Made by a program: the position numbers and the translations under genes. From Hirudinaria manillensis (lineage: Eukaryota > Annelida > Clitellata > Hirudinida > Hirudinidae): a stretch of DNA of 64,000 nucleotides. The notes below the pieces were generated by a model. That model did no database searches, was not told where the DNA came from, and saw nothing but the letters and a program-made list of their open reading frames with translations. This document shows positions 20,168 through 59,139 of the stretch, in pieces (the first letter of the stretch is position 1; each line of letters starts with the position of its first letter). The DNA is taken from assembly GCA_034509925.1 (NCBI GenBank), contig CM067534.1, positions 1,466,501-1,530,500 on the forward strand. Reading direction: 5' to 3'.

Positions 20168-20294
20168 GCACCCAAATGATGTTAATGGAAGAACTATTGA
20201 ACAAAAAATGTCGCAGATCCAAGCAAAAATCCAGAAAATGCAATTAAAATGAATATATTGAGACAAGCTGAAAGACTGAAGAAATGGGCCAGAG

Positions 20295-20410
20295 TTAGGA
20301 TTAATGGTTAGGGTTATGACTAGGGTGAAGATTAGGGTTAGAATTATGTTAGGGTTAGGGTTAGGTTTAGTTTTACTGTTGGGGTCAGGTTTAGGGTTAG
20401 GATTAGGTTA
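20295..20410 (+). repeat. degenerate interstitial telomere-like (TTAGGG)n tract
   Basis: About a dozen perfect and variant TTAGGG units (TTAGGG, TTAGGT, CTAGGG, TTGGGG). TTAGGG is the canonical repeat of most lophotrochozoans. Shorter pieces occur near 24434-24447, 53293-53308, 57522-57541 and, on the other strand, 60986-61003. The tract is interstitial, with unique sequence on both sides, so this is not a chromosome end. Confidence 0.8.
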
Positions 20411-27800: not shown

Positions 27801-30800
27801 TCTTTGAACCCGCCTTCTCCAAGACACCCCCCGGACTTCCAGACCCTCCCGCCGTCCCGTGGCTCGACGGAGACAGACACCCCTCGGCTCGGACCATCTG
27901 CTGCACCTTGGCCTGCACGAACCTCTCCAGCATTTCCGCGTCCTTGTGCACTTGCGACGACTCCTCGTTGTAGTGTCGAGCGTTCCTGAACATGAGCTCG
28001 AAGTCACTGGCCAATGACTGGATGTTGTTGTACTGCAAAGGAAAAGTTGTACGTGATGTGTTTCATTAAGTACTCGGTTTAAAAGAAAATTTAATGTTAG
28101 TGTTACACATAATATTGATGCAAGTAAGAATTATATTGTAATATTGTTGTTATACCTAAGAATTATTACACGTAATATTGTTGCCCTTAAGGAATGCATC
28201 TTCAATCTATGAAGTATAACAGCAAATAGTTTTAAAAACAATTCCATACGCCATTCTACCCTAGCTTATGTAAACTACATTATAACAAACGTGAATATCT
28301 TAAATTAAAATATAATTATATTTTTATTATAAAATAATTAAAATAATTATGAATTAATATTTTAAATAATTCAAGCAACCTTATTGGATCTAATCTTCTG
28401 GTTAATGCTATTCATATCGATTGGTTGACTGATGACTTGATAGTAGTCTGGATAATATTTCTTCGAAGGCAGGGTCATGAATAGGTCGATCACGTGCCTG
28501 TCCCCAACCTGTTGTTTAATAATGGTTTATTAATAAATTTATAATAAGTTAATAACTAATTAATTCTAATGCATTAATTTATGTTCAGACCTTCAAGTCA
28601 AACAGGGACTTGTACAATGAACATAGGTTTTTATTCAACACTTCATTGGACGACTTCTTCCTGCCGTCATCTGCATCGACATCGTCTCCCTTTTGCTGCT
28701 CTGTCGATTCATGCGTGACCTCCTAACAATCATCATAATCATCATCATCATTATCATCACTATTACGACATTGCAATTTCAATTATTTAAACAACTTTAA
28801 AATTGTAAACCTTGCTTCTCATCAGTTCCGCATACTTGTTCTGCACGACTCTTTGCAATGTGTCAGCATCCTGAATAATTAATTAATGAATTAATTAATA
28901 ATGAATGAATGAATTAATTAATAAATAATTTATCCTATAATTATTATAATAATAATCAGATTATTTCAATTTTTGGCCCTATTAATGAATTAATGAATGA
29001 ATGAATTAATTAATTAATCTGTTTATTGCAACATTTGCAGGTCAAGAAGAGAAAATGGCCGACCTGGTAGATCCTGCTGTCCTCTCTGTTGTATTGTTTG
29101 GCATTGTTGAAAACCAGGTGAAGATCACTTGCAACTCCCTCCATATCCTGATACGCTCCACTCTGCAAAGTAGACTTCAGTAGTAGAAAGTTTATAAAGT
29201 CAAAATGTTTTTATGTATATTTAATATATCATTCATAACATCAAAAAATAACTATTTATACATTTATTAAATAAAATATACTTTTATTCAAACCTTAATC
29301 TTTTTCTGAATTTTCATCACGGACATTGGCCTCTTTATTTCCAAGTAATAATCAGGATAAAATCTGAATTAATATAAAATCTGAATTAATATAAAATCTG
29401 AATTAACATAAAATCTGAATTAACATAAAATCTGAATTAACATAAAATCTGAATTAACATAAAATCTGAATCAACATAAAATCTGAATCAACATAAAATC
29501 TGAATTAACATAAAATCTGAATTAACATAAAATCTGAATTAACATAAAATCTGAATTAACATAAAATCTGAATTAATATAAAATCTGAATTAACATAAAA
29601 TCTGAATTAACATAAAATCTGAATTAACATAAAATCTGAATTAATATGAATTAGAAAACTTTTGTTTATAAGCAAAGTAAATTAGGCTTGTTTAGAAAGT
29701 GGTTGAAACAATTAATATAAAAATTAATATAAAAATATAGATTTAAAAGTCAGTAAAATAAAGACATTAAAGAATATTAAACAATCTCAGACACAAAACT
29801 TAATTCAAACCTTTTGCTTGGCAGTCTTAGAAAAGGTTCACAGAGCAATTGATCGTTCGAGTCCTTGTAATTCTTGACCGCGTTGTACAAGAACCATTGG
29901 TCCGTCTCCGTGCCGTCGTCGTCCGACGCTTCCCCGTCGCTGCCTCTGATTGGTGGGAGGTTAATTAATAATTAATCACAATAACATTAATAGAATATCA
30001 TTCATAACTGTATTAACAAATTATTAACAGTAGTAGCATTGTTAAAAGTACCAACAATATTATTCATAACTGCATTAACATATTATTATTACCATTATTA
30101 TTAGTATTATTATTATTAGTATTATTATTATTACCATTATTATTATTATTAGTAACCTGCGACGCGAGTCGGGCATCGCCTCCTCGTCCGACTCTGATTT
30201 GAGGGCAGCAAAGACCGCAGAAAGATTCGACTGCTGTTGAGCCAAACTCCTCCCCCTCGTCCGTTGACTTCTGACTTGTTTCAATTGTTCCAGTTCTTGC
30301 TTCTTGTTCAACACAAACTTTTTCAAACCCGTCGCATCCTGAACGAAAGAACAGAGGATCAGAAACGAACGAACGAAGCGCCCTCCGAAGTAGTTCCGAG
30401 ACTCGCCTTGTAAATCTGCGAACCGGGTTCGTTGAAAGTCTTGGCGTTGGCGACGACCAGCATCAGGTCCGCGACGAGGGCGTCCAAGTTTCGATACGAA
30501 GACGACCTGATCTTCCTGGCGATCAGTCGAAGGTCCATAGGGTCCTCGATGACCCGGTAGTACTCGGGAAACTTCTGTCGACGTGGAAACCAAAGTCGTT
30601 TTCGACGGACGACTCGTCAAAGAAGAGAGGAAGACGTCGACTCACGGTTTTGGAAGGAAGGACTCTGAACATGTCCGTCAGGCACCTGTTGTCCTCAGAA
30701 GCCGTCACGGTGGAACTGAACAACTGCTCGATCAACAACTCGTCGTCCTCCGTCTGACCGAAAGAGTCTTCGTTGGACATCATCGCCTCCATCATCTGCT

Positions 30801-32942
30801 AGCGATCGGAGTCGAAGGAAAGTAGTTGCAATGTTTATTACGAATACGCTTTGTAGTCGTTACTATTGTTATTTTCGTTGTTTTATAACATTTTTAATTT
30901 TCAATTAAATTTGATTAATTAAAATCTCCTCACAGCCTTTTTAGTTCTCCTTTTCCTCTTTGTGGTGCTTTTGCTCGGTTTTGCCTAATAGTAATAACAT
31001 TATAATAATAATAATAAAGTAATAATTACAATTCACTTTGATTTGTAAAAGCAACAAGCACCACCATTTGCACAACTGTAGATTGCATCATCATCATCAT
31101 TATCACCATCGTCATCATTTTAAAATTAATGGCTACCACATTACTTATTCACACTAAGATAACTAAATGTTGATTCGATTTTTAAATGCAATATGTCGTA
31201 AATAAATTTATGCACGATCTGATCTGCTTGTACTGAAAACAGAAAGCTCATTATCATAAATGCATATTCATGTACACATCAGACCTCCTCCTCGCCCTCT
31301 GAACCTGACGACATGGCATTCGAGAAGCAGCCGTTCGACTCGTCTGCCTCCAAATGACGCTCGGGCCTTCGACGAATAAATTACTAAATTAATAATTAAT
31401 GTAATGCTAATAATAAAGTCAAGGGCATCGAGAGCATGATGTAGGATGATTCAAGAGTTCATTGAAAGAAATATTAATCAGTGAATAAGATTTAATTCAT
31501 TGATCATCAACTGGTTGCTTTATTGACATTAATTCATCAACTGATCGATCGACTCGTTAACGTAAATAAACGCAGAGCGATGACGAAAGTCTTCTGTTCC
31601 GACTCAAACTTCACCATGTTCAAAAAAAGTTACCAAACGTAAACCTCATACATCCGACCTCTTATGTAAAACGTAAACAAATGTACAAAAACGTAAACAC
31701 GAATATCGACCTGGTTTCCATGGAAACGGAAGTCGCTTCTCCGGATCCCGGAACAACCTTCAGTTTGAGGACGGGGACTTTTGGAGAGGTTGACTGCTGC
31801 ATCTGTGGCCTCTTTTGTTGTAGCATTTCACTGGAAAGATCATTATTATCATCATCATCATCATCATCAACGATCACCAAAACAAATCTCAACATCCATT
31901 AAAATTGGTACACATAATGACTGGCACCACCGTCGTCAGTTGAAATAAATCACGAATCGCACGAGCACTCGACCTCGTCGCGACGTTGCTCGACGCCTCT
32001 TCGTCTGTTTCCGTGGCAACCTTCCTCTCGGCGACGCAGTCTCCGAGTGCCTCGGACACGAGCTGCGTCTTGGAGTGCTGGAACAGATCCCACAATTCCA
32101 GGGCATTCTTGTATTCCATTGTATCCGGCTAAACAAATTCAATGCGATTGTAACATGTTTATGATCTCATCTCATGCAAATTGTGTCCTATAAAAACATA
32201 ATTAATATTCATAAGGTGTATACATTAATTAGCTTTCATCCTATTCACAAGCTTTAATTGCTACATTTCCATGTTGTGCTATCATTTTCTAAGAAACAAA
32301 AGTAACGAATTGCTACATGTTATCAGTGATGCAATGTCTCCACATTAGTTGCTAAGATCATTAGCATCTAAAAATACTATCAAATAAAGTGTTGCCAGCT
32401 TGCCTGGTAGAATGACTTGGCATTGTTGATCATTAGTTGAAAGTCATTGGCCATCTCTTCGACATCATCATATTCTTCAGACTTCAACCTATGCTGTATC
32501 TTCAGCAGATCCATTGGTGTGTTCACTGTGACGTAATAGTCTGGTTCGTTCCTGAAATATAACATTTCAAGCGCATTACAACAAACGTTTCAATAGAGCG
32601 CCAGGGAAGACCTTCAAACAATTAAATTAGCGGCAAACCTTCGCTTCGGAGCTCTGATAAACGGCTCGCATAGCAACCTGCCATCCTCTGTTTTCTGATT
32701 TCTCACGATTTCGTAGAGATCTTGACATATTTCTTGCTATTATTAATTAGAAACTGTTGATTAATTAAATCTCAGAATACGCTGTCTTAAGTCGTGGTAT
32801 CGAAATTGGGTGAAATCTAATTATGTGAAAGAATAGAAATGAAACCGACCGGATTGTAACTCGGTATTTTTTTCAATCTCTTGCAGGCTGTTTCATCGTC
32901 TCGATAGTCGTTACTGCCTCTACGCTTCTTGTTAAATGGCAT
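21884..32942 (-). CDS. PBRM1: Polybromo-1 (PBAF/SWI-SNF subunit): six bromodomains, two BAH, HMG box
   Basis: Polybromo targets the PBAF remodeller to acetylated chromatin. ATG at 32942 ([16 protein letters not shown]); about 37 exons. BD1 32736-31974 ([29 protein letters not shown]); BD2 30798-30157 ([14 protein letters not shown]); BD3 29945-28811 ([14 protein letters not shown]); BD4 28722-27800 ([14 protein letters not shown]); BD5 27509-26832 ([20 protein letters not shown]); BD6 26554-25771 ([34 protein letters not shown]); BAH1 25731-24983 ([20 protein letters not shown]); BAH2 24759-23735 ([22 protein letters not shown]); acidic linker 23529-23350; HMG box 23277-22801 ([33 protein letters not shown]); C-terminal motif 22311-21884 ([26 protein letters not shown]). 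The acetyl-lysine-contacting Asn motif (YN/FN) is visible in BD2 to BD5, but BD1 has FYQ and BD6 has NHS. Two introns use GC donors (after 32404 and 30407). The junction between 26554 and 26410 did not close in phase. Confidence 0.95.
24433..24448 (+). repeat. short TTAGGG-like run in a Polybromo intron
   Basis: Two and a half telomere-like units (TTTAGGGTTAGGGTT) inside the intron between the BAH2 exons at 24537 and 24381. It is too short to infer more. Confidence 0.6.
24775..24815 (+). repeat. (AAAT/GAAT)n microsatellite in a Polybromo intron
   Basis: About ten tetranucleotide units, AAAT with interspersed GAAT. It begins about 15 bases upstream of the exon that starts at 24759 on the minus strand, so it lies directly next to a 3' splice site. 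Confidence 0.85.
27515..27716 (-). repeat. 19-bp minisatellite abutting the Polybromo BD5 exon acceptor
   Basis: About 10 or 11 copies of a 19-bp unit, on the coding strand roughly CCAATTTATTCTTTCAATT. The array ends within a few bases of the TTCTTCCAG acceptor of the exon starting at 27509, so the unit is an expanded polypyrimidine-tract-like sequence. The frame-open protein it implies, with recurring SIPIY and NSNLFF, is spurious. Confidence 0.9.
28081..28379. other. Polybromo intron, nothing recognised
   Basis: AT-rich intron sequence between the two BD4 exons at 28508-28380 and 28032-27800. No repeat or coding signal seen. Confidence 0.6.
29364..29648 (-). repeat. 17-bp minisatellite, 17 copies, each a copy of a 3' splice site
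   Basis: Seventeen tandem copies of a 17-bp unit; on the Polybromo strand it reads TTAATTCAGATTTTATG with T/C or A/T variants. The BD3 exon at 29363 begins ATTTTATCC directly after TTAATTCAG, so the last unit is the genuine acceptor plus the first exon bases. The array starts at the splice site and extends upstream. Confidence 0.92.
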
Positions 32943-33255
32943 CTCCGATCGCACTTTATAATCACGTCAAAAGTTTGATCCTGATGCAAGCCAGTATCTG
33001 AACACAAATTTTTGCAAGTAAATAATCCGATTTTGATGTATGTTCGACGACGGTTTCAAAATCCTACTAGTACTGTGAAGTGGAAACAAAGAACTGATAT
33101 ACATTAAGATTAACTTAAAAGAATGGATTTTTTTTTATTTGGTATTTTTTTTATAGATATGCATTTTGACAAATTGCGCCTATACGTCAGCTGAATTAAA
33201 TTTGACCGTCGCCGCTTTGAAACTTAAAGGCAATTTTTGGTGTCGCTCTGCCTGC
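32943..33255. promoter_or_regulatory. divergent Polybromo / MBD4 promoter region
   Basis: Start codons of Polybromo (minus, 32942) and MBD4 (plus, 33256 or 33268) are only about 313 bp apart, head to head. No TATA box is obvious. A T-rich tract lies at 33126-33152. A shared bidirectional promoter is inferred from spacing alone; 5' non-coding exons could change this. Confidence 0.5.
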
Positions 33256-35827
33256 ATGCGGCGAAGAATGGAATTAAACGAAGAGTTGTTCATGACTGAG
33301 TTGCACTTAAAAAAGGAAATACGGGTTCGTCAATCCGGTAAAACTGCGGGACGAAGAGACGTTTATTATGTCAGGTTTGATGCTGTCCAGTTATTTAGAG
33401 AATTTCAAATTATTGATAGTGATTTCAACCACAGTGCATCTGGGCGAAGACTAAGATCTAAAAGAGAAGTACTGAGCTACCACAATGAAGTTCTTGGGAA
33501 AAGCAATAAAGAGCAGTCATGTTTAGGGCCCTTGATTCATCCAAAGGCGAAAATTTCTGAACGTAATGACATTATCAACTCTCTACTCGACAATGTGTTC
33601 TTAGTAGTTGAACATTTCATTTTAGAAAATGAAACAACGAACGTCTTTAAGAAAACCCGTCTGAAAACCAACTGCCATTTGAATCAAACTCTAACCAAAT
33701 CATCTGTTAGAAAGTGTTTCTGACATCAGTTTTTAACTATTTTTCCAAACCTTGAAGCTTAAATTATCACATTTTAGGCATCAAATGATTCAATCACATC
33801 TAACCAACACAAATTTATTGGGCACGAAGAGGAGAGTCAATGTCTCCATCATTCTGCTCTAAACTTCCAATCTTTGGAAAAGGCTTACCACGAAGCAGAA
33901 CTTCCTTGCAAATCTGATAATTTTGAAAGTAATGACCTTGTGACAGAAAATACTAATGAATTAATTCAAGTCAAAAGTTCCACACAAGAAGACAAACTGA
34001 AATCATGTTTGGAATTATCATATGCTGAAAATTCTAAAGAGGACAAAACATTTAAAAATCATTTTAAAGGTCGTAAGAATGTAAGGCGGAAATCTTTTTC
34101 CAGGCCCATAACTGCAGAATCTTCCACTTCCTCTCACAATTTAAATCTCACAAATGCCCATAAAGACTGCAAAAAGTTTGCGCCTCGTGGCAAATTAACA
34201 AAAACGACAAAGACGAGCAGCACTCCAACATCCAGGAAGCTGTCTCGTTTTCAGAGGAAAAAGCTGGCATCAGAAGAGAATTCTAGCCTGAAAGGATGCT
34301 CGTCTCCAGGGAGATTCAAAAACCACAGGGACTCGAAATGGCACCCTCCAAGATCTCCCTTCAATCTTGTTCAAGAACAGCTGTATGATGATCCTTGGAA
34401 AGTTCTGGTGGCCACAATTTTTCTCAACAAAACATCTGGTGTGCACTTTTTTGCGTGTGTTTTGATCATAACTAATTATTTTTATTGTCCGCACTGGTGC
34501 CATTCATGACTTAATGATGTGAATGCAATATTGTTATTATTGTATTATGTTTATGTCCATAACATAATATGGGGTTATGTAACATTTCCAATTGGTATGA
34601 ATAAAATTTTAATAATATTTATATTTATTTTTTTTAGCTCTAAATGATGTAGCATGATTATTTCTCTTTTATTTGTATCTTCTGTCAATTTATGTATCTT
34701 ATCAATTCATGTTTGTATTCTATTATGTCTGTACTTGCTAATGTTAACTCTAAGTAAGTGATTCACATAACTTTAACATAAATATAAATGCATGTCTCTT
34801 AAGTTAAGATTATTTTCATTTAATGAACAACGGATTTATGTTGTGATTGTATATATATATCCCTTAACTATTTATCAATTTCGTATCCGACTCAGGTCAA
34901 GTGGCGATACCGGTGTTGTGGTCATTTTTCGAGAAGTGGAAAAGTCCCGAAGAAGTGGCATCCGCGAATCCGTCTGACATATCCGGGCACATGGAATGTC
35001 TCGGACTTCACAACAAGAGGGCCGACATCCTTATAAAATTCTCGAGTTGGTAGTTAAAACAGATTGTTAACCAATGATGCCCTGAAATCGATTTCCAAAA
35101 AGTTCTTAATTCCCGAGCACTTTCGTGCCTTTTTATGTAACCTTAACGCACGGACATGGTTAAAAGCAAAACTCTCCATTATAAGATCTCGTGCATTTAC
35201 ATTTTTGAGTTGTGAAACAAAAATATGAAAATTGAATTGTTTATGTATGTATCCATTGAGGAAGGGTGTAATTATCTCATTAATTATGAGTGTTATATCC
35301 GTGGTAATGCCTTAATTCGGGCCCACAACAATGAGTATCACTGAAAACAATCTATTTTAACAGGGGAATACTTGGAGAAGGATTGGAAATATCCATCTGA
35401 ATTGTATGGAATTGGAAAATATGGGACTGATTCCTACAGGATATTTTGCATTAACGAGTGGAGAGAAGTGAATCTTCTAATTTTTTAAAACATTTTTATG
35501 ACATGACATTGGATATAGGTTGAAGTTTGACTAAATGAACTCTTTGTAGGAATATCATTCTGCAGAAGTATTTAATTGAAATTATATGGATGTATTTATT
35601 AATTATTAAATAATTTATTATTATATATTAATTAATTAATTAGATGGATATATTAATTAATGTACTTCAACATTCATTGTTTCATTTCAATTTTATTCCC
35701 ATGAACTTCTATTTATTTATTTATTTATTGTTATCTTTTTTCTTCTCTCTAGGTGAGTCCAGATGACCACATGTTGAACAAATACCATGATTGGATCTGG
35801 GAGAATCATACATCTCTGTCCATTTAG
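33256..35827 (+). CDS. MBD4: MBD4 methyl-CpG-binding T:G/U:G mismatch DNA glycosylase
   Basis: MBD4 removes thymine or uracil mispaired with G at deaminated CpG. Exons: 33256-33374, 33435 to about 33711 (donor GTGTTT), 33778-34438, 34896-35045, 35364-35467, 35753-35827 (stop TAG). The N-terminal MBD reads [15 protein letters not shown], then (after a 60-bp intron) [12 protein letters not shown], keeping both arginines that contact CpG. A Lys/Ser-rich linker follows. The HhH-GPD glycosylase starts with [20 protein letters not shown] and [10 protein letters not shown], continues [12 protein letters not shown] and [19 protein letters not shown], and ends [16 protein letters not shown]. The aspartate in DDHMLNKY matches the catalytic Asp560 of human MBD4. 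The usual GW near the MBD start is not seen. Start may be ATG 33256 or 33268; the frame is open further upstream. AATAAA lies at 35943-35948. The presence of MBD4 suggests CpG methylation in this animal. Confidence 0.93.
33375..33434 (+). other. 60-bp intron inside the MBD, multiple of three and free of stops
   Basis: The MBD is interrupted between DVYYV and [10 protein letters not shown] by exactly 60 bp that begin GTTTGA and end CCACAG. Removing them restores the family spacing. Because the intron is in phase and open, retention would insert 20 residues into the DNA-binding loop region rather than end the protein. Confidence 0.75.
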
Positions 35828-39610: not shown

Positions 39611-42600
39611 ATGGCTCTGTCCCCGTCCAATGGTTCTTGGGACGAACAGTCAGACTGCAGTCTGGATTCGCGACCTCCAAGACCAATTGGAGCTAAAGAA
39701 TTGATGACGAGTCCTCAAATCCAAGTCACGCAATCAGACAACATGGATTCTGCCGAAGGAATTTGGAGCGCAGATATCGAACAAGCATTCATCGAAGCCA
39801 TGGCCATTTACCCTCCTTGTGGTAGGAGGAAAATCATCCTATCAGAAGAGGGCAAAATGTATGGTGAGAAACGCCTTTTCACTTGTAAAGGATTCCTTTG
39901 GTTTACGAAATATTTCTGTAGGGTATTGAAACGCAGGGATTGGCAGTAATTAATTAATTATTTATTTATTCATCCATCCAAATAAACGATCCAATGAGGA
40001 CGAGCCTTCCCCAATTACAAGTGTAAACAAGGCTTGGTAACATCTAGTGAGGATTAAATGAAATGATGGAAAGATAAAAGAGCTATACTTTAGAAAACAC
40101 AAATAAAAGCAAAACAAAAAAAAACAGAGATAGGATGATTGTGATTTTTATTTTGTCTAAGACTATGATAATAAAAATATTAATATTTATTATCATTAGT
40201 GTTATGATGACCATTGATAATTGATTAATATGGAGTGAATCCGTGCTTTGCATCAACCAATAGGAAGGAACGAATTAATAGCTCGATACATCAAATTGAG
40301 GACGGGAAAGACGAGGACCAGAAAGCAAGTATCGAGTCACATTCAAGTTCTTGGAAGGAGGCACGCAAAGTTCATTTCTGCTGCTGCTTTTAAGGTTCGA
40401 TCGTTTTCTAAGTTTTAACCCTTTATTTGTGTTTATTTATTTCTATTCTATTTATTAATAAATTCATAAGTTTGGTTCCTGAAACAGTGTCAAACATTGT
40501 GAATTCCTAAATTAAATTTTCACTAATGTTTTGTAATCGTTCAGTTCCAGACGTTCAGAGATCATCCGTACCTGTCTCTCGGTTCTCCTATAAAATCGCG
40601 CTTCACGGAACTGGAAATCAAACCCTGCTCGACTCCGGAGAAGGCGATCACGACCGAAGAAAGACCTCCGTCGAAGGATGAAACTGTATTCGGGAGTCCG
40701 TCGAAGGACTTTCTGTCGGAAAAGTGCAGGGGAAACGATCTCGTGTCGCCTCTCAAGTCCTCCTCCGTGTTCAATTCGTCCACTCACGGAGAAGAGCTCT
40801 CCAGAACCGAGGCAAATTAATTGTCGTTTATTATTTATAATAATTCTTTATTAAATATATTAATAATGAATAATAAAGCTGAAACATGTTTAATGACATG
40901 TTGCACACTAGCACTTGGCTACTGTCAATTGAGAAAGAACAACATCAGTGCAACATTAATTAATCAGTATTTGTTGACATTTTAAACATTTCATTGCATT
41001 CAAACTGCAGCTACATCTGAGACGGGTGAATAATCCATTCAAATCCTCTTCAGATTACCAGCCTGGACGACAACAACAACAGCAAATTTACATCCGAAAA
41101 CTGCTCGGCTCAGTTTTATCCAGACTCGACCTTTTCTCCTTCATCCCACAACAACAACAACAATACCATGTTCCCCCTTCATTACAACACCCCCAACTTC
41201 CCCTCTGACGAGGGGGCAGTCTACCCGCACCCGCACGTCCAACCCTACTCGGGCAACTACTGTACTGCTCAGGACTTTCGCAGCCATCGCAGGTACCGTC
41301 CAGAAACTCCAACTTCCTGCTATCCTCCGATGGCACATGCCTATTCCCCCTTCACGAGCCAGGTACTCTTTGCGTTGAACTTTGAACCCTCAATTTTTAA
41401 TTTTTAAAATTTTTATTTCATAACTTTTAGTTCACCGAGAGATTCGATTAGAAATGGGATTTTAATTTTTTCTGCTCGACTTTTGTTCGTGACTTGCTTT
41501 AATCAAGCGAATTCCAACTTTTTTAATATTCATTATCATTATTAATTCCTTCATGAATTATTAATTAGCAAATTTTGTTTGTCTTTTGAACTCCTAGCAA
41601 CAGTTGTGGAATTCGCCGGGCCACTTTAACAGGTTGGTGTCCGCGTCTTCGTCTTCGAATCCGAACCCCGACCTTCACCTTTTGAATCTCCGAAACAGGT
41701 GCTCCAGGACTCCCGAACACGTCTCTCGTCAGGGACCCCACTGCACCCCCAGGGACCTGACGCTGGCTTCGAGTCTCAAGTGCATCGAATCCTCGAAACT
41801 CAGACTCGTCGAACTGTCGGCTTTCCTGGAAAAACCGAGCATCGGCGGACGGGTTCGTACTCTCGGAGGCCGACTTCGTGTTTGACTTTGAGTCGATTAA
41901 TTAATCGAAATAAATTATTGATTAACTGTTAATATTTTACGAGCATAGTTCGATTTGTTAATTCGTTAATGCGATGATTTCAATGTTTCAATCTTCCTCA
42001 GATGAAACAAAATGTCCACAACTTCCTACGAGTCGACCTGTCGTCCTACGACAATGCAGAGTTCGAGGCAGGTTTTAAAAAAAAATCATCGATTAATTAA
42101 TTAATGCTTCTTCGAGCCATCGACCAATCAGATTCGTCATTCTGTTTTCAGACCATCGACATCAATAAAATTTTGGACAAATTTCCTTCAAACAAAGGAG
42201 GTTTGTTGGAGCTCTTTGAAAGGGGTCCAAAGGAAGGATTCTACCTCATAAAATTCTGGGTAAGCAATGCTGTTGGATGTGTTATTAATTCATTATATAT
42301 ATATTTGTACATTATTATATATTTGTATATATTATGTATTTCCATATATTATCCATTTGTATATATTATATATTTGGGCAGAATAATTGGATTAACAACT
42401 AACAAATTATCATCACAGACAAATTTGAATGTTGACCTCGAAACCACAACAGATCACTTTTTTGCCTCTACAACCAGGTTTAAGAAATATAATTTGATTA
42501 TAATTGTTTATTAATAATTATTATTAATTAATCTGCCTAATTATTTGTAAAACTTTGTCAAAGATGGGAATTCACATTTTATGAGAAGTTTTGTAAATCG

Positions 42601-43855
42601 ATCTGCACATCCGACGATGCATTTGAACGTACAATTGAATCGAAGGGACGATGAGCGAGTAATTAATCAAACTGAATTAAATTAATTTTATTAATAAAAT
42701 GCAATTAGTATTTAAATTACTGATAAATTTGTGACGATCAGATTCGAAAGCCGAGTGTTTTGTTCCGAGATTCAGTCCTCGTCAAAAGTTTGTTCTTTCG
42801 GTCGACAAGTCGTCGAACGGATTGAGGTTCGTCACGATTGAGTTGGAATGTTGAGTCAGTTGTTGGAATGTTGAGTCAGTTGTTGGAATGATGAGTCAGT
42901 TGTTGGAATGATGAGTCAGTTGTTGGAATGATGAGTCAGTTGTTGGAATGATGAGTCAGTTGTTGGAATGATGAGTCAGTTGTTGGAATGATGAGTCAGT
43001 TGTTGGAATGTTGAGTCAGTTGTTGGAATGATGAGTCAGTTGTTGGAATGATGAGTCAGTTGTTGGAATGATGAGTCAGTTGTTGGAATGATGAGTCAGT
43101 TGTTGGAATGTTGAGTCAGTTGGAATGATGAGTCAGTTGTTGGAATGTTGAGTCAGTTGTTGGAATGATGAGTCAGTTGTTGGAATGATGAGTCAGTCGT
43201 TGGAATGTATTTCCTTTAATTTATTTGTATTTTTTTTAGTTAATCGCTTAATTTAATTATTTTAATTATCAATCAATGGATCAATAATTGTGATGGAGGT
43301 TGAGAGGATCTGCCATGTTACACATTTAAACTAATCGTGAAGTGTTGTTTGTGGAGTTTTAAAAGTATTGTCGATAACAATTTAAATAATTATTAATTCA
43401 GAAGGAGTCGTGCCGTTGTGCTGAGAACAAGTTCCACTTTGAGTTCGTCAGACTCCCCATGTGCGAGTACCTCATCAATTTCCTACACAAACTCAAACAA
43501 TTACCTGAGAGGAAAATGATGAACAGTGTTCTTGAAAACTTTACCATATTACAGGTAGGTCATCTCCACCATCATGTTTCAATGTGTCTTCAGTAATTTT
43601 CATGATGCACTAAGTGCATCTGGTAACATCTTAGCTGGGCAATAGAAAATATCTGGTGAAGGTTTTAATTTGATCTAATGGAGAGCATTTTTAATTTTCG
43701 ATTAACAGAATATATCTATAAATTAATTTTTATTGAATTCTGGACAGGTAGTGACGTCTGTTGAAACAAGAGAAACTTTGCTCTGTTTAGGATTTGTCTT
43801 TGAGGTTTCTGAAAGTGATGCGGATATTCAACATTGCATTTATCGCCTTGTTTAA
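39611..43855 (+). CDS. TEAD: TEAD/Scalloped transcription factor (Hippo pathway, YAP/Yorkie partner)
   Basis: TEAD binds CATTCC/GGAATG sites and recruits YAP/Yorkie. Exons: 39611-39863 (TEA domain start, [36 protein letters not shown]); 40264-40394 ([32 protein letters not shown]); 40545-40811 (serine-rich linker); possible 15-base micro-exon 41011-41025; 41054-41362 (Asn/Pro/Tyr linker); 41598-41852 (start of YAP-binding domain, [16 protein letters not shown]); 42002-42067; 42152-42259 ([27 protein letters not shown]); about 42420-42475; 42742-42826 ([16 protein letters not shown]); about 43402-43555 ([20 protein letters not shown]); 43748-43855 ([22 protein letters not shown]). DNA-binding helices and the YAP-binding surface are nearly intact. 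The intron after 42067 begins GC, and the one after 40811 probably does too. An extra open exon-like piece at 42564-42653 is not needed by the family alignment. Introns carry the TEAD/AP-1 motif array described separately. Confidence 0.93.
42841..43207 (+). repeat. 20-bp minisatellite of paired TEAD and AP-1 motifs in a TEAD intron
   Basis: Eighteen tandem copies of a 20-bp unit, TTGGAATGATGAGTCAGTTG (one copy shortened to 17 bp), starting 15 bases after the donor at 42827. Each unit contains TGGAATG, the reverse complement of the M-CAT/TEAD site CATTCCA, then one base (A or T), then TGAGTCA, the AP-1 consensus. In all there are 19 TGGAATG and 18 TGAGTCA. The few differences between units fall mainly in the spacer base, leaving both motifs unchanged. 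Confidence 0.95.
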
Positions 43856-50401: not shown

Positions 50402-52189
50402 TCGGAGGAAAGTTCGCGACCCCTTCGAACTCTGCGTCCGAAAGACGAGGTCGTTGCGTTCTTTTATTCGACATGCGTGCGTGCGAACGGCATTCGCACT
50501 GTCGTCGATCGAATCTGCGGACGCTAATCTCGACGACTCACCTGACGACGTACCTGACGACGACGTGTACATTTCTCGGAGTATTTAAAGAACCATGCAA
50601 GATCACGTACCTCTCGAACAATCTGAGTTTCTATTTATTTCTTTTAGGCCAATCTCGACCGACCTCCATTTGTTGTCTTGTTTTATAGTTTTTTTTTTGA
50701 TTTATAGTTAGTTATTATCGCCATAATAAGTCGTTGAAGACGCGACCTTGGATGAATGACTTCATCTTTGACAATCTTTGTTGCAAGATTTTTAATTTGT
50801 AAGTTCGTGATCATTCGTCGGGTTTTTTTTTTGCCATCTCTGAGTTGACTTTACAGATAAACTGTAGACAATTTCAATAAACAGTTTGTTAATGGACGTC
50901 AGTTATCTCGGTTGTCTTGTGGGTCCGTCATCTGTTCTCGCAGGAAGGTCACGCTGTGGACTTTATGGGTGTATTTTCTGTGTTTATTTTTTTTTAAACC
51001 ATTTTGGCAGTTATTTGACTTTTAATCTAATTCTGAATGCGTTGTTTTTGAAAGGTGAGCATCACTAATGTTTAAAAATCTTTTCACTTGTGAACTCAAT
51101 GAAATGATTGATTTGTGGCTATCAAAGGATAGGCTCGGCAGTGGTGGCAGGCCTTTTTTCTGGAGTTGAGTTGAGTGAGGACCTGGAAATGTTAAACTGC
51201 AAATAGTTCTTTGGTGGTGGAGTAACATTCGCCCTATGTTGACTTTTGATCTAAAGTAGAGACAGGAGCAACTGATGATGATGATTACGCAGTCGGAAGA
51301 CCGTTGGTGCTGGATATGAGTTCTTGAATTTTGTTATGCTTTCAGAAATTACTGAGAATCAAAAACAGAAGACAGAAAAAACAGCTCACTCAATGAGTCG
51401 AATATGGCCTTGAGTTGCGCACTTATTTACCCAAGCTTTCTTTTGAACAAAAGGTCTCTTTGTCCTCATTTAATCAAAGTAAGAAACAAAACCACGGTTC
51501 ACGAGGAGTGTTTTTCATGTGTGGCCTTCCAACAATTTTGGTCCTCACTTTTTCGTGAGTCTTAAAATGTTGTTTATTTGGACTAAAAGCAAACAATTGG
51601 CAAAATAAATAAAAAACAAATTAAAACAAAGCGAAAATAGGTTAGGACGTTACATTAGCCTGTGAAGTATGTCCTATAAAAGTCATTAAACAGACCTTCA
51701 TGCAAATTTTAAAATCCATTGTTCGGCGAGAACTTTGTGCAGGAATTGAAAGAAAGCAGATAACTGTTTCTGTCCTTGAGGTCATTAAATGTTTGCATAA
51801 ATACTAACAAGGGACCAACATCCCTAGCGTCTCTACCGGAGCCTCTGAGTAGTGAAAAGTTTGTGATGCATTATTATAATGTTATTAATACTGGTGTTAT
51901 TATTTTTATAATTACATTTATAATAATTACTTTCCATAATTGATAAATCATTTGCAATCATTTATTTTTAATGGTTACTTGGTGCTGGCCAATTTAAGAA
52001 ATTATGAATGAATAGGTTTCCTGCAGAACTTTCTTAACAGATTTTTTAAAAGACTATTTAATTAAATCATCTGCCTTATGCCTAACTATTTTCTTTGGAA
52101 ATATGTTTTAGAATAAACATTTTTTCCATATTTACATTTTACTTTTATAACTACCGCTATTTTTATCCCGTAATCTTAGCAACACCATC
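50402..52189. other. zinc-finger gene 3' UTR and globin 1 upstream region
   Basis: Contains the zinc-finger gene polyadenylation signal at 50876. From about 51705 the sequence matches the region upstream of globin 2 (about 55228-55513), marking the start of a tandem duplicated block. No other gene recognised. Confidence 0.6.
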
Positions 52190-53130
52190 ATGTTGAAGTT
52201 TGCAGTCTTTTTGGGGTTTACCATAATCGGCACCGTCTTTGCCGACTTGGAAAGCGACGAACTTGACACCTACTGCAGTGCCGAAGATGGTAATGTCGTC
52301 GGACAGGAGTGGCACAATCTTTGGGAAGACAGTGATTCATCATTTAAGGTGGCTCTGGCCAAGAGCGTTCTTTTGAGGTTTGTAAATAATGCATTAATGC
52401 TTATTAATTAATTAATGCACACACAAACATATACGGCCAATCTATTCATCTGTCATCAGGACCATCACAAGCTTAAGCTATTACAGTTAATGATGTCATT
52501 TCCTGACACAGAGTTGTCGAAAAACATCCCGAAGCAAAAGAGCTTTTCGAAGGAGTTGGAATCGAAAATCCAAATTCTGGAAAATTCGACGCTCATGCCC
52601 TGAGAATTTTCAACTCACTCGATCTCCTCCTCAGTCTCCTCCACAACAGAAATGCCCTCGCAGCAGCAAGCAAGCACCTCGGATTTCAACACGCTGCCAG
52701 AGAAGGAGTGTTTTTCAAATTCTTCCAGGTAAATTTATTTTAATTAAAGATCTACCTGGCGCTTTACCTATATTCTCATTGTGCTATCATTTTAGACTTT
52801 CGAAACTGTTCTGTTGGCCGACCTCAAACAACTCGTCAATCAGTTCCACTACACTTCCTGGAAAGCTTGCTTCAAGGTGCTGACCAAAGGAATTGAGGAA
52901 GCAATCCCTCAATAATTTCCCAGACAAAAACAAAGCGATTCAATTAATAGACGAATAAATGGCTCCTTATTCGTTTATTTTTTCAATCCAAAGAATCTAA
53001 AGAAGAATGAACCGTTGAAATGAACCCTAAAGAGGAGACGTTGAACATCTTTTTATCGCAACTGCCATCTTTTGACTTTTAATAAAATTAATTTAAAAAA
53101 AACGCATGGTAATTTTGTGTGAAGTGGCGA
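51705..53130 (+). repeat. tandem duplicated globin block, copy 1 (globin 1 with flanks)
   Basis: From about 51705 (TTGTTCGGCGAGAACTTTGT) through globin 1 and about 200 bp of 3' flank, the sequence matches 55228-56425 with high identity, including intron 2 (about 92% by eye) and the 3' flank. Further downstream, 53690-53880 and 54650-54750 match 57970-58130 and 58825-58920 more weakly, so the original duplicated unit was about 3.5-4 kb. Confidence 0.8.
52190..52915 (+). CDS. annelid extracellular globin 1
   Basis: Secreted oxygen-binding subunit of an annelid erythrocruorin/haemoglobin. Exons 52190-52377, 52512-52728 and 52796-52915 (TAA); introns in phases 2 and 0, the standard B12.2 and G7.0 globin positions. 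A signal peptide (MLKFAVFLGFTIIGTVFA) precedes DLESDELDTYCSAEDG. Cysteines in YCSAED and WKACFKVL are placed for the conserved N-to-H-helix disulfide. EWHNLW is the family A-helix motif. The distal His is in FDAHALRI and the proximal His in KHLGFQH. About 174 residues, near the family norm. AATAAA at 52954-52959. Nearly identical to globin 2, so a recent duplicate. The residue after the distal His is Ala, with no sulphide-type cysteine. Confidence 0.95.
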
Positions 53131-53394
53131 TTTTGCGTGCTTATTGCTCAATAAGAAAATGGATGCCTTTTTTTGCATGGGTGAAATTTTAGCAAAAAGA
53201 GGATGAGATATTTTACTTTTGAACGTGGGACCTCTATCTTCCTACTTACCTCTTAATTGGCTTGAACCAAATATTTAGTTGGACTTAGCATGGAACTAGG
53301 TTTAGGGTTACGTTGCCAGGAACATTGCCTCAAAGTTGATGTTATTTATACGTTAATTATCTCCTTATGACATAATAGACTTTACATCCAGCGA

Positions 53395-53420
53395 TATATA
53401 TATATATATATATATATATA
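53395..53420 (+). repeat. (TA)n microsatellite
   Basis: About thirteen TA units between globin 1 and the globin relic, intergenic. Confidence 0.95.
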
Positions 53421-54640
53421 GTTTTAAAACTATAAATAATGAAATAAAAATCTCGTAGCACGAGGTGCATTGCATTACTTAATAGTATTAATCGTTTCTT
53501 TGCCTTTAAAAACCAACAGTAAACTTTCCGCAATTTGTAATTTAGATCGAACTATAAATATGTCTGGGTATGGAAAAGGGGAAAAATTTGCAAATTACTC
53601 CTTCAGGTCTATCAAGATACCCAGGTTCTGAGGTCCAACTTGACTGTAAATTGGAGGCTCTCTTGCTGTTACTACTCTTCACCAACATCTTCAATTAATT
53701 AGTCTTTATGAATTTTCCTGAAATCTAAAAAGTTTTATGCATTTATTCCTTTGTACAAAATTTACAGTTACTTAAAACATTTACAAAATAAATTTGCATT
53801 AATAACAATGACCTTTCTTCCCTCCTGAGATCGCATTTGTCAGAACTTAGCAAGCGTACCCAAACCTGCTTTGGAAATGTACAGCATAATACGATTAACT
53901 AATTGAAACATGAAAATTCTCGATATTTACCGAATGTTGCAGCCAAAAAGAATGACCAAAAACCATTTCATATAGACTGCTTCTACAAAAATATAGGTCT
54001 GTTTTGTTTCATTAAAGAAAGAAAGTTAACCCAGAATAGTGATTTTTTTCTAAAATTAATGATAAAAAGAAAAGTCACTAAAAAAGTAGAATGTCTTAAT
54101 TTTAAACCCACAACACTGAACTGACAAGAGAAACACGAATGCTTCATATATAAATTTAATAAAACTGGATTTAACAATGGATCCTTAAATATTAATTTAG
54201 ATTGAGGGGTTGGTGCACTGGTTTTTGTTTTCGGTTTCGGCGAGGGGCCGTTGGCCCGTGCTGATTTTTTTTCAAATAAATTCCAATAAAAATTAATATC
54301 AACAAAACAACGTATTGATTGAGAAACGAATGGAGCTGGAAATTTGAACAATGCTGTTTGTTAAGACGCTGCAATCACAAAATGTCCAATGCTCTTTCCA
54401 CGCAGGAAGAATACTTAATTTGGTTTAGTCAGGTGTGAGGTAAATGATTAGGTAAAGTGACCATTGAAAAATTAACCATAAGAGCCAATGAATATCGACT
54501 CATCAACTTCATTTCAATAACAAGAGTGAAGCAAATGACCTATATGATTTACCTAATTTTAATTTAAAAAAAAAACAAGTTAATATTCATTGTTTGTTGC
54601 GAACTTTGTACGTCTCCTGGAAAGAAACAGAAACTTTCAT
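53421..54640. other. intergenic between globin 1 and the relic
   Basis: Parts of 53690-53880 match 57970-58130 at moderate identity (TCTTCAATTAAT, then GAGAT-GC-TT-GTCA). The reading frames in this stretch have no recognisable product. Confidence 0.5.
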
Positions 54641-54649
54641 TTTTGGATT

Positions 54650-55045
54650 GAGAGTCTATGTAAACGACAGTCTTCCACCGGTTCGATCAGCACCTGTTTT
54701 GGAGCCGCAGAGTAGTTGTGAGAAATTGGTAATATAAGAATTTTTGTTTTGGAAATTTAAATCGTTTCTCGTCAATAATCATGGACGCAATAGAAGGAGA
54801 ATACAGGATAATTAGATTAGGACATTACTGCCACTCCTCTTGTTCAAATAATTTCAGTTGGTGACCATTTTCAAGTCAATATCAGAGTTCAAGTCAAGAT
54901 AAATTATACACATTTGCATAGGTTTGACAATGCAGTCGAAAGATATCACGAAGCAAAAAACCATTTTTCGAAACGTTGAAATTGAGGGTATAGACGAATC
55001 CAACGAATTCAAGAATATAATGGATAATTCAAGGGCTTAAAACTG
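54650..55045 (+). pseudogene. decayed globin gene (promoter plus exon 2 remnant)
   Basis: 54655-54745 closely matches 58828-58915, the region just upstream of globin 3 (both contain TCTATGTAAACGACAG and the phrase TCGATCAGCACCT). Downstream, about 54930-55045 matches globin exon 2: GTCGAAAGATATCACGAAGC resembles GTCGAAAAACATCCCGAAGC in globins 1 and 2, followed by a degraded LFxxVxIExxxxxxEF region. Exon 1 and exon 3 are not recognisable. Position and promoter match suggest that this was the globin-3-type partner in the first copy of the duplicated block. Confidence 0.7.
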
Positions 55046-55227
55046 AGAATATAAAGTCTTATTATAATTAAAAGAGTTATGTTTGGAAAGATTTATAAAT
55101 AATAATACCAATTATAAGAAACATCCTAAGTAAAAGTTACTAATTATTATATACTAATTACAAACATTAATAAATATTAAGAAATAACAAATAGAACCCA
55201 GAAATTATCCAAATTCCCTGGCACGAT

Positions 55228-56425
55228 TTAAAATCCATTGTTCGGCGATAACTTTGTCTAGGAGTTGAAAGAAAGCAGACAACTGTTTCTGTCCTTGAGG
55301 TCATGAAATGTTTCCATAAATACTAAAAAGGGACCAACGACTCCATCGTCTCTAACGGAGCCTCTGAGTAGTGAAAAGTTTGTGATGCATTATTATAATA
55401 TTATTAATACTGGTGTTATTATTGTTATCATTACAATAATCAGGTATTATCGATAATCAGTTGCATGCAGTTGTTACGGTTATTTTTCATCCCAAACGCT
55501 TAGCAACACCATCATGTTGAAATTTGCGGTCTTTTTGGGGTTTACCATAATCGGCACCGTCTTTGCCGACTTGGAAAGCGACGAACTTGACACCTACTGC
55601 AGTGCCGAAGATGGTAATGTCGTCGGACAGGAGTGGTACAGTCTTTGGGAAGACAGTGATTCATCATTTAAGGTGGCTCTGGCCAAAAGCGTCCTTTTGA
55701 GGTTTGTAAACAATGCATTAATACTAATATAGGTCTATAAACGCAGACACAAACTTATATTACCCTAGTAAGCTTAAGTTACTACTTGAAATTGACTATC
55801 ATTTATGATATCATTTCCTCATGCAGAGTCGTCGAAAAACATCCCGAAGCAAAAGAGCTTTTCAAGGGGGTTGGAATCGAAAATCCCAATTCTGGAGAAT
55901 TCAAAGCCCATGCTTTGAGAATTTTCAACTCACTCGATCTCCTCCTCAGTCTCCTCCACAACAGAAATGCCCTCGCAGCAGCAAGCAAGCACCTCGGATT
56001 TCAACACGCTGCCAGAGAAGGGGTTTTTTTCAAATTCTTCCAGGTGAATTTATTTTAATTAAGGATCTACCTGGCGCTTTACCTAAAATCGCATTGTGCT
56101 ATCATTTTAGACTTTCGAAACTGTTCTGTTGACCGACCTCAAGCAACTTGTCAATCAATTTCACTACACTTCCTGGAAAGCTTGCTTCAAGGTGCTGACC
56201 AAAGGAATTGAGGAAGCAATCCCTCAATAATTTCCCAGAAAAAAACAAAGCGATTTAATTAATAGACGAATAAATGGCTCCTTATTCGTTTATTTTTTCA
56301 ATCCAAAGAATCTAAAGAAGAAAGAACCGTTGAAATGAACCCTAAAGAGGAGATGTTGAAAATCTTTTTATCGCAACCGCCATCTTTTGACTTCTAATAA
56401 AATTTATAAAAAAAAAAACGCACGG
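55228..56425 (+). repeat. tandem duplicated globin block, copy 2 (globin 2 with flanks)
   Basis: Direct-repeat partner of 51705-53130. The match covers the upstream region, all exons, the start of intron 1, all of intron 2 and about 190 bp of 3' flank, arguing for duplication of genomic DNA rather than retroposition. Confidence 0.8.
55514..56230 (+). CDS. annelid extracellular globin 2
   Basis: Paralogue of globin 1. Exons 55514-55701, 55827-56043 and 56111-56230 (TAA), same phases. The signal peptide is identical. It differs at only a few residues (EWYSLW for EWHNLW, LFKGVG for LFEGVG, SGEFKAH for SGKFDAH, VLLTDLK for VLLADLK). Both disulfide cysteines and both haem histidines (FKAHALRI, KHLGFQH) are kept. 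The copies are probably a recent tandem duplication, possibly homogenised by gene conversion. Confidence 0.95.
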
Positions 56426-59139
56426 TAATTTTGTGGAAAGTGATGATGCAGACTGCTTTGTTCCATCGATGTCAAGTTTAGATCTTAAACTGTAGCATTC
56501 CCAAATGTAAAAACAATCGCAAAAAATTCGTGGAAGTGCAAAATTAGAACTCATTATTGGATTCTGGATACGAATATAAGAGAGTTGAATTTCACATAGC
56601 ATTAGGTAACGTCTTAATGTTTAAAACAAATTTAGATTGTCACTAATATTGCTGAATATTCCTCACCGAGCACTTACGACATATCTTTAGGAGTTTCACT
56701 TTATTGGGCGTAACTTTATTAGACAATAATTTTATACCATAAAATTGGGTTATATAATGAGAATGCTCGTATGAAATCTTGAAATAAACTTTATTCATGG
56801 TTAGGCATGAAATGCTAATTGACGTGCCAATTTGTACGCCATGTCTCTAGTGGGGTTTTCACACATTTTTATAATTAATTATTTGCTAGGTAAGTGTTCA
56901 TTATTTCATTAGCTATACAAATGTACATCAAGTACAACTAATTAAAAGTATTGCTTGACTCCTAAGAACATGGGGAGGAAGGCTTAGAGAACAAGGTAGA
57001 GGTTAGATTGCGTCTTTCAAGAAGGCAAAATTTTCAATTCGTGTAAATAAATATAATTTTAGAAGAGCGAAATTTTGAAATTCAAGCAACGTCAAAAGAT
57101 GCCTCTCTCTCTCTCTCTTTCAAGAAAAAGGCACAGACTTTGCTGGAATAACAAAATTTAAGAAAAGAGCTATAGGTTTATTGAAGCAAAAATTCGGAAG
57201 TGCTTCCTTGGTGGCATCTCAAAAAGACTTTGCATATCTCTTCATTGGTTATAGCCTCAGTTGTTTCATGAAAAGTGTTGGCCGTATTTGATCGTTCGCC
57301 CGAACACACAGGTTTATCTCTTGGCTCTCTTACTCTGTTATTTCTAACCTACTTTACTTATCCTTCTCTTGAATGGCAATACTTCTCTCGTCTTTCAGGT
57401 CGATTGCAACTCAGTTAAATACTTGTGAGTCATGGATCAATAAGCAATTATCTAGTTCAGATGCATGAAGTTTAGTGACACCTTAAATACGAGAACGGAT
57501 AAGAGACTTAGAAAATTTAGAGTTAGGGTTTGGGTTAGGTTTTATAATTCTATTACGTATTATATGATGTATTAACATACCATCATAGCTACTTACCTTA
57601 TTTCCATCCTTCATTAGTAATGATTCTTGCCACGAAAAGTATGCCTGAATAATAAAATATTTACGTTTAATCTAATATTATAGAATCTATGGTCAAATCT
57701 CACTTAAATATTAATATATATCAAAAGCTGGTCACCTATAAATCTGCAAAGCTAGTCGCTAGAGGGACATTGCATAACATTATTTAGTAATTGAGTTAAT
57801 ACTATTAATCATTTCGTTACCACTGAAACCAATAATAAATATGCCACGATTTAAATTTTTTAATAGACATAAGAAGGAATAAATAAATTAGGACGTGAAA
57901 GAGTCATTGATTCGTAAATTACTCCTGCTTCCAGGTCCATCGCGCTCCTCCAGAAGTTCTTGTTACGATTCTTCGCCATCTTCTTCAATTAATCCGTCTT
58001 TAAAACACACATTGACTCGTTTTGCGCTTCTTTTTCATCATGCAGTACTTGCAGTCTCTTGATGCATTAACGAAATAAATTGCAGTGTTACAAATGGCAC
58101 TCTCAATTTCCCTTCTGAGATGGCGTTGGTCAAAATTAACAAACTTATTCAAACATGGAATGAAGTGCAATACATTAGAAAAATACAGATTCTCCATATT
58201 TATCGAATGTTACAGCTGAGAAACTGAAAAGAATGATCAAAAACCGTTGCATACATAGACTACCGTCACAAAAATGTAAGCCTGCTTCGTTTCATGAAAC
58301 AAAGTCCCCCAGAAGAATGAAAACTTTTTTTTTATAAAAAAGAAAGATAAAAACCAAAGGAACAGTTGATATAAAAAATATAAAGAATCCTTATCTTCAA
58401 ATTGAATCAACAATGAAGTGACAACAGAAACATAAATGTTTCACAAACACATTTAATAAAACTGGATCATTAATAATATTAATATTGTAATAACCTCTCT
58501 AATCGAGTAGCATTATTTGTTAGGTTGCTGCATATACAAAATGCTAATTCTAATTCTAATGCTAATTCCAAATATCTTGTTTATCATGATTACTAAAATT
58601 AACTTAATTTATCTAAAGTAAAATTCTAAAGAATCATATTGAACCACAAGAGCCAATGAAAAATCAGAGTAAAGAATGATAAAATCACTTTTGAACCAAT
58701 AAAAATTACAAGGTCGAGGAACTTTACATTATTTTTTTTTTCGAACTTTTTCGAAAAAAGTTAATATTCATTGTTCGTTGTGAACTTTGCTTTAAAGTAA
58801 ACAGACCACTCTTATTTTTGGAATGCGAGTCTATGTAAACGACAGCCTTCCACCAGTTCGATCAGCACCTCTTCTGGAGCCTCAGAGTAGTTGTGAAAAA
58901 TTGGTAATATAAGAATATAATACTTTCACGACTACTGCTATTAATTAATAATTATTATACCAATTAAATAACAATTGGTAATGTAAACACATTATGTGTA
59001 TTATTAAATAATATTGTTATTGTGCCAGACAGCGAATTTACAAGTCGAGAGGATTTTTACTAAGAAGAATATTATAATATTCTCTGTGCTGATAAAAGCG
59101 TAACTGACGTTCTTTCTTTCAGAGCCTAAAGACATTACG
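56426..59139. other. intergenic between globins 2 and 3, includes globin 3 promoter
   Basis: A (CT)n stretch near 57103-57120 and a TTAGGG-like run near 57522-57541. From about 57970 the sequence is similar to the region after globin 1, ending in the upstream block 58828-58915 shared with the relic at 54655. No other gene recognised. Confidence 0.55.

What the first reader, a model, noticed from the sequence alone, without database searches (positions are those of the whole stretch)
42841..43207. Eighteen tandem composite TEAD/AP-1 sites inside the TEAD gene's own intron
The 20-bp minisatellite unit TTGGAATGATGAGTCAGTTG holds a TEAD site (TGGAATG, the complement of CATTCCA) and a consensus AP-1 site (TGAGTCA) separated by one base. 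I count 18 pairs plus one extra TEAD site. Unit differences fall mainly in the spacer base. The gene carrying the array encodes TEAD, and TEAD and AP-1 are known to co-occupy enhancers in Hippo-pathway regulation. The period (about two helical turns) would place all sites on one face of the DNA. This could be an autoregulatory enhancer or sink grown by tandem duplication. Chance expansion of a unit that happened to hold both motifs is the alternative.
Basis: partly seen in the sequence, partly recalled or inferred. Interest (0 to 1): 0.92.

Follow-up and report, generated by a model that had tools for sequence, protein, structure and literature searches.

The report
TEAD/AP-1 minisatellite in TEAD-gene intron
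A short DNA unit holding landing sites for two growth-control proteins is repeated 18 times inside a gene for one of those two proteins; it looks like a young repeat that could work as a switch, but nothing yet shows that it does.

Summary
The array is real: 18 units TTGGAATG(A/T)TGAGTCA(GTTG), 42843-43199, plus one extra TEAD site at 43200. It fills 63% of a homology-inferred 575-bp intron (42827-43401) of a divergent TEAD gene, from intron nucleotide 17. The genome has three TEA loci; the conserved paralogue on C2 has the same intron (121 bp) without array or motifs. The unit occurs as an array nowhere else. Minisatellites are common here (5 loci in 140 kb), but a random 20-bp unit carries both motifs with probability about 3.5e-6, so even one such array per genome is unexpected (about 0.02). 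Against a purpose-built element: neither spacing in the array (1 bp within units, 5-6 bp between) is enriched elsewhere in this genome, sites are not on one helical face, and the RNA has no special fold. No orthologue, chromatin or transcript data could be reached. Best reading: a young intronic minisatellite, probably binding-competent, possibly an accidental enhancer. Selected autoregulation remains open (0.22).

The parts
42843..43199 (+). 18-unit minisatellite, unit TTGGAATG(A/T)TGAGTCAGTTG (17 units of 20 bp, unit 14 of 17 bp), each with one TEAD consensus and one AP-1 consensus
43200..43207 (+). partial 19th unit TTGGAATG: extra TEAD site without AP-1
42827..43401 (+). host intron (phase 0, GTTCGT...TTCAG), 575 bp; array covers 365 bp (63%) from intron nucleotide 17
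   Evidence: frame and splice-site reading against TEAD homologues; no transcript data
39764..39865 (+). TEA domain, first part (exon boundaries not fixed)
40263..40376 (+). TEA domain, second part with [15 protein letters not shown]
42155..42259 (+). co-activator-binding domain exon segment ([11 protein letters not shown]...LIKFW), upstream boundary not fixed
42419..42477 (+). short exon [20 protein letters not shown] (inferred from homology and splice sites)
   Evidence: read from sequence, aligned
42742..42826 (+). exon just upstream of the array, ending [17 protein letters not shown]
   Evidence: acceptor inferred
43402..43554 (+). exon just downstream of the array (KESCRC...[13 protein letters not shown])
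43748..43855 (+). last coding exon ([13 protein letters not shown]...IYRLV, stop TAA)

Best explanation
A young minisatellite that grew by slippage or unequal exchange from a single seed in a short, tolerant intron of a duplicated, fast-evolving TEAD gene. The seed happened to hold a consensus TEAD site one base from a consensus AP-1 site, so expansion multiplied both. Shown: the array, its motifs, its place, its uniqueness in the genome. Inferred: recent origin (near-identical units) and absence of selection for the motifs. The 37 sites can probably be bound by TEAD and AP-1 in open chromatin, so a weak or accidental enhancer effect is quite possible, but nothing shows that it was selected for this.
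For: Minisatellites of similar unit size are ordinary here: 4 in the window and 5 separate loci in a 140-kb sample, about 5,300 per genome by a loose extrapolation. About 22 arrays per genome would carry a TEAD 7-mer by chance, so a TEAD-motif array as such is expected. Units are near identical and the unit is found as an array nowhere else. The same intron of the conserved paralogue is 121 bp with no TEAD or AP-1 site, and the 20 kb around that gene have 0 TGGAATG on either strand and 1 TGASTCA. TGGAATG-1-TGASTCA accounts for 5 of 78 hits outside the array over spacings 0-20 (mean 3.7 per spacing). The reverse geometry (CATTCC-6-TGASTCA) has 9 hits outside the array against about 8.8 per spacing (hand count). 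RNA fold is unremarkable, z +0.85.
Against: A unit with both motifs is expected in only about 0.02 arrays per genome, and such an array within three TEA loci (taken as 30 kb) about 4e-6 times, before correcting for the many TF genes and partners that would have looked equally striking. All three classes of unit difference fall outside the 14 motif bases (chance about 0.03 if independent). Published FOS-TEAD or AP-1-TEAD pairs prefer 6 or 7 bp (PMC11741299, PMC5201045, passages), and CATTCC-6-TGACTCA is a geometry that the array contains 17 times, though the papers' text did not let me check which orientation they mean. The reversed-pattern controls printed by the searches are about five times below the hits (15 against 78; 44 against 232 outside the array; 5 against 28), which would favour real co-occurrence if taken as the null; see Tried and rejected for why I did not.
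Confidence: 0.55

Rival explanations
1. Selected autoregulatory tandem-repeat enhancer: TEAD-coactivator and AP-1 bind the array cooperatively and tune the transcription of this TEAD gene, copy number setting the gain.
For: Perfect consensus sites in 18 of 18 units; joint motif content very unlikely for a random unit; both kinds of protein encoded; motif bases unchanged while spacer and linker vary; published intronic tandem-repeat enhancer with dense homotypic motif clusters (PMC13373173, passages).
Against: No accessibility, binding, expression or orthologue data; conserved paralogue lacks it; array spacings not enriched in the genome; sites spread round the helix.
Confidence: 0.22
2. Enhancer of the neighbouring zinc-finger gene rather than of TEAD.
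For: A same-strand gene with C2H2 fingers has its first long ORF at 44600, 1.4 kb after the array.
Against: No promoter, transcript or contact data for either gene; same lack of evidence for activity.
Confidence: 0.05
3. Binding sink: the array titrates TEAD or AP-1.
For: 37 consensus sites in 365 bp.
Against: One locus against about 30,000 exact TEAD 7-mers per genome, extrapolated from 30 per 140 kb; titration by one array is implausible unless TEAD is very scarce.
Confidence: 0.03
4. Splicing element: a repeat starting 16 nt after a weak donor (GAG|GTTCGT) that modulates use of the intron, as suggested for some intronic minisatellites in C. elegans (PMC4039745, passages).
For: Position from intron nucleotide 17; non-consensus donor in both paralogues.
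Against: No RNA structure beyond shuffles; the paralogue's inferred intron has the same kind of donor and no repeat. Splicing-factor motifs were not searched for.
Confidence: 0.1

Closest known systems
MORC3-regulated element (MRE), an intronic tandem-repeat enhancer of IFNB1 with a cluster of SPI (PU.1) motifs (PMC13373173, passages seen)
   Same: Intronic tandem repeat whose unit multiplies a consensus TF site; that paper also reports MORC3-restricted tandem repeats with AP-1-like motif clusters.
   Different: Here two different motifs alternate, the host gene encodes one of the binders, and no activity is shown.
TEAD/AP-1 composite regulatory elements (PMC5201045, PMC11741299, PMC8463077, passages seen)
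   Same: Both motifs close together.
   Different: Published elements are described with a 6- or 7-bp preference or with highly variable distance; here the pair is 1 bp apart within units and repeated 18 times. One array geometry, CATTCC-6-TGACTCA, may coincide with the published 6 bp, orientation unchecked.
Ordinary intronic minisatellites, e.g. CeRep25B in C. elegans (PMC4039745, passages seen)
   Same: Unit size, intronic place, head-to-tail copies.
   Different: Unit holds two consensus TF sites; single locus instead of a dispersed family.
Laboratory multimerised TEAD or AP-1 reporters (recalled, no call)
   Same: Many copies of the same sites head to tail.
   Different: Natural, with both sites in each unit.

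Membership tests
Intronic minisatellite | head-to-tail near-identical units of about 10-60 bp | tested here: met
   18.5 copies, period 20, 95% matches
Intronic minisatellite | lies inside an intron | tested here: met
   splice sites and frame against TEAD homologues; no transcript
Intronic minisatellite | copy-number polymorphism | not testable with these tools
   one assembly, no reads
TEAD/AP-1 composite element | both consensus motifs adjacent | tested here: met
   18 of 18 units
TEAD/AP-1 composite element | published 6 or 7 bp spacing in a fixed orientation | tested here: inconclusive
   1 bp within units; 6 bp between CATTCC and TGACTCA across 17 unit junctions; orientation of the published motif not readable from text
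TEAD/AP-1 composite element | geometry over-represented in the same genome | tested here: not met
   5 of 78 at spacing 1; 9 at spacing 6 against about 8.8
Tandem-repeat enhancer (MRE type) | motif cluster in a tandem repeat | tested here: met
   19 TEAD and 18 AP-1 sites in 365 bp
Tandem-repeat enhancer (MRE type) | accessibility, factor binding, enhancer activity | not testable with these tools
   no functional data held
Tandem-repeat enhancer (MRE type) | motif cluster kept in orthologous introns of other species | not testable with these tools
   The genome search says the own genome has no relatives there; only paralogues compared
TEAD gene | TEA domain and C-terminal co-activator-binding domain | tested here: met
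   128 bits to the TEF-3 (TEAD4) TEA domain, 199 bits over 169 residues to the TEF-3 C-terminal domain

The most novel reading that the evidence does not exclude
A TEAD paralogue acquired a self-made, length-tunable enhancer: an array of 18 alternating TEAD and AP-1 sites in its own intron gives a Hippo- and AP-1-responsive feedback loop whose gain changes with repeat number.
Probability: 0.22. Interest if true: 0.8.

Novelty: new member of a known kind. Interest (0 to 1): 0.45.

Why it matters
If active, it would be a natural multimerised TEAD/AP-1 reporter inside a TEAD gene: a clean case of an enhancer born by tandem duplication and of repeat number setting the strength of a feedback loop, testable by simple reporter and deletion work. 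If inactive, it is a useful caution: a genome with several thousand minisatellites will throw up motif arrays beside relevant genes.

Tried and rejected
Tried and rejected. (1) 'All sites on one face of the DNA': rejected for the whole array; only neighbouring units are roughly in register. (2) A genome-wide TEAD/AP-1 grammar matching the array: not found. One geometry was over-represented, CATTCC-1-TGASTCA (57 hits; 49 are exactly CATTCCATGACTCA, hand count), but the 5 copies that I fetched (5 of 49) share their 90-bp left flank, with one base different in L047, and 4 of 5 share the right flank, so it is a dispersed repeat family; the array does not use that geometry. The 8 other hits are about the background of 8.8 per spacing. 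Spacing 7 has 15 hits outside the array, a mild excess that I did not test further; the array does not use it. (3) RNA structure or Rfam family: none. (4) Coding through the array: each of the three + frames meets a stop at or within the array's first units, and a 20-bp unit with TGA rotates through all frames. (5) Bacterial-type promoter scan: 2 found, 1.3 expected (not apt for an animal). (6) The reversed-pattern controls printed by the searches lie well below the hits. I did not use them as the null because the reversed words differ in dinucleotides; single-motif counts in the 140-kb sample (30 TGGAATG on both strands, 19 TGASTCA) give about 90 expected pairs for the pattern, against 78 seen, so no overall enrichment for that arrangement. 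For the CATTCC arrangement I have no such estimate. (7) Published sequence-level form of the composite: not found in the text passages or listings seen. (8) Organism: the two fish-leech assemblies in a listing (171.1 and 174.1 Mb) do not fit the 148.4 Mb here; not pursued.

Full report
What is there. The window holds, at 42843-43199, 18 head-to-tail units TTGGAATG(A/T)TGAGTCA(GTTG), followed by a lone TTGGAATG at 43200. Tandem Repeats Finder reports 42842-43207, period 20, 18.5 copies, 95% matches. Seventeen units are 20 bp, unit 14 is 17 bp. The spacer base is T in 5 of 18 units. The other differences are one T>C in unit 18 and the 3-bp loss in unit 14. The gap from TEAD to AP-1 is 1 bp in 18 of 18 units; from AP-1 to the next TEAD it is 5 bp in 17 of 18 and 2 bp once. 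In the genome the 20-mer with up to 2 mismatches occurs 18 times here and once elsewhere, and the core TGGAATGNTGAGTCA 18 times here and 3 times elsewhere.

Where it is. TEA-domain matches lie in the window (39755-39871 and 40251-40352), on C2 and on C8. Downstream, the window encodes most of a C-terminal co-activator-binding domain in pieces without stops; joined from IDINK onward (169 residues) they match residues 50-217 of a solved TEF-3 (TEAD4) chain at 199 bits, and the TEA domain matches at 128 bits. The piece before IDINK and the N-terminal part of the gene were not modelled. The exon ending [17 protein letters not shown] stops at 42826 and the next begins at 43402, both phase 0, so the intron is 42827-43401 (575 bp) with donor GAG|GTTCGT and acceptor TTCAG. 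The array begins at intron nucleotide 17 and fills 63% of it. There are no transcript data, so the gene model rests on homology. The window's copy is the divergent one: against the C2 paralogue it is 60 of 71 identical in the TEA domain but 91 of 167 aligned positions in the C-terminal domain.

Paralogue test. The C2 paralogue has the same intron at the same position, 121 bp, with no TGGAATG, CATTCC, TGASTCA or the partial forms tested. The 20 kb around it hold 0 TGGAATG (either strand) and 1 TGASTCA; the 20 kb round the C8 TEA exons hold 3 and 3, two of the TEAD sites 17 bp apart in opposite orientation, no array. A C-terminal domain was not found within the 20 kb on C8.

Is it more than chance? 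As an array, obviously. As a motif coincidence: in 14 regularly placed 10-kb stretches (140 kb, 11 from C1 and 3 from C2) 8 TRF rows, which are 5 separate loci, meet period 10-70, at least 4 copies, score at least 100; the window has 4. That is about 5,300 per genome, loosely. Of 200,000 random genomic 20-mers from that sample read as tandem units, 0.42% hold the TEAD 7-mer, 0.24% hold TGASTCA, none holds both; the product with a non-overlap factor gives about 3.5e-6. So about 22 arrays with a TEAD site, 13 with AP-1 and 0.02 with both are expected per genome, and 4e-6 with both inside three TEA loci taken as 30 kb. The last figure is post hoc: hundreds of transcription-factor genes and many partner motifs would have looked equally striking, and the unit matches other motifs too (also a Myb site and an E-box among 40 consensus strings recalled from memory; of the 8 other minisatellite units tried, 1 matched one string and 7 matched none).

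Does this genome use the array's geometry elsewhere? TGGAATG-N(0-20)-TGASTCA has 96 hits, 18 in the array; of the 78 others 5 have the 1-bp spacing, mean 3.7 per spacing, and the spacing distribution is flat (chi-square P 0.36). The other geometry that the array contains, CATTCC-6-TGACTCA across unit junctions, has 9 hits outside against 4 and 15 at spacings 5 and 7 and about 8.8 on average (hand count; one search listed only its first 100 places of 250, so the average uses its totals less 18 array hits and the 57 of spacing 1). The excess at CATTCC-1-TGASTCA is a dispersed repeat: the 5 fetched of 49 exact copies share their left flank, and 11 copies lie about 4.4-4.5 kb or twice that apart on C12. 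So no native fixed-spacing grammar was found that explains the array.

Published geometry. One paper reports a 7-bp oriented TEAD-AP-1 spacing in footprints (PMC5201045, passages), one a strict 6-bp FOS-TEAD composite in models (PMC11741299, passages), one highly variable distances with some spacings slightly preferred (PMC8463077, passages), and one AP-1 motifs enriched in YAP1 peaks but no convincing sign that AP-1 recruits YAP1, with a functional double TEAD site of 3-bp spacing (PMC4546604, passages). The 1-bp pair inside the unit matches none of them. The junction geometry could match the 6-bp form if its orientation is CATTCC then TGASTCA; the text does not say and figures are not held. 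This is the strongest open point in favour of function.

Physical points. 20 bp per unit is 1.90 turns at 10.5 bp per turn, a drift of 34 degrees per unit; the sites spread round the helix (mean resultant length 0.37, 0.15 and 0.19 at 10.2, 10.4 and 10.5 bp per turn), and unit 14 shifts the register again. The intron RNA folds no better than shuffles (z +0.85; 80 of 100 shuffles fold at least as well).

Reading. The simplest account is a recently expanded minisatellite in a tolerant intron of a duplicated TEAD gene, with a seed that carried both sites. TEAD and AP-1 could very probably bind it if the chromatin is open, and tandem repeats with motif clusters can be enhancers (PMC13373173, passages), so an incidental or even selected regulatory role cannot be excluded. 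Motif bases are unchanged while 3 of 3 classes of difference fall in the 6 other positions (chance about 0.03 if independent, which homogenisation makes doubtful). If it is an enhancer, its target need not be TEAD: the first long ORF of a zinc-finger gene starts 1.4 kb downstream.

Literature. Searches of the open library listed no paper whose title or abstract opening tells of a tandem TEAD/AP-1 array or one in a TEAD gene. The listings were capped (20 of 105, 25 of 242, 25 of 328, 15 of 173, 15 of 50), most's hits were 'YAP1-TEAD' and off the point, and subscription papers are not held, so this is no proof of absence from print.

Noticed in passing
G000:C12:360077-414274 and 38 other places; L045-L049: Dispersed repeat family containing CATTCCATGACTCA (49 exact places, hand count); 5 of 5 fetched copies share the 90-bp left flank (one base differs in L047), 4 of 5 the right flank, while L046 runs into a TTA repeat; 11 copies on C12 lie about 4.4-4.5 kb or twice that apart. 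Element unidentified, no Rfam match.
   Followed up: partly
window 52151-63700: Cluster of globin genes (Pfam Globin in 2 of 3 ORFs tested), probably extracellular haemoglobin chains of an annelid.
   Followed up: partly
window 27514-27713 and 29357-29644: Two further strong minisatellites; the first has unit AAGAATAAATTGGAATTGA, which contains TGGAATT, one base from the TEAD site.
   Followed up: partly
window 20294-20407: Degenerate TTAGGG-like interstitial repeat (12-bp unit TTAGGGTTAGGA, 67% matches).
   Followed up: no
window 30359-32589 (-) and 33157-33723 (+): Two bromodomain exons of a minus-strand gene, and an ORF with a borderline methyl-CpG-binding-domain match just beside it.
   Followed up: no
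G000:C8:2163564-2167500 (L011, L012, L027): Third TEA-domain locus; no C-terminal co-activator-binding domain found within the 20 kb examined.
   Followed up: partly
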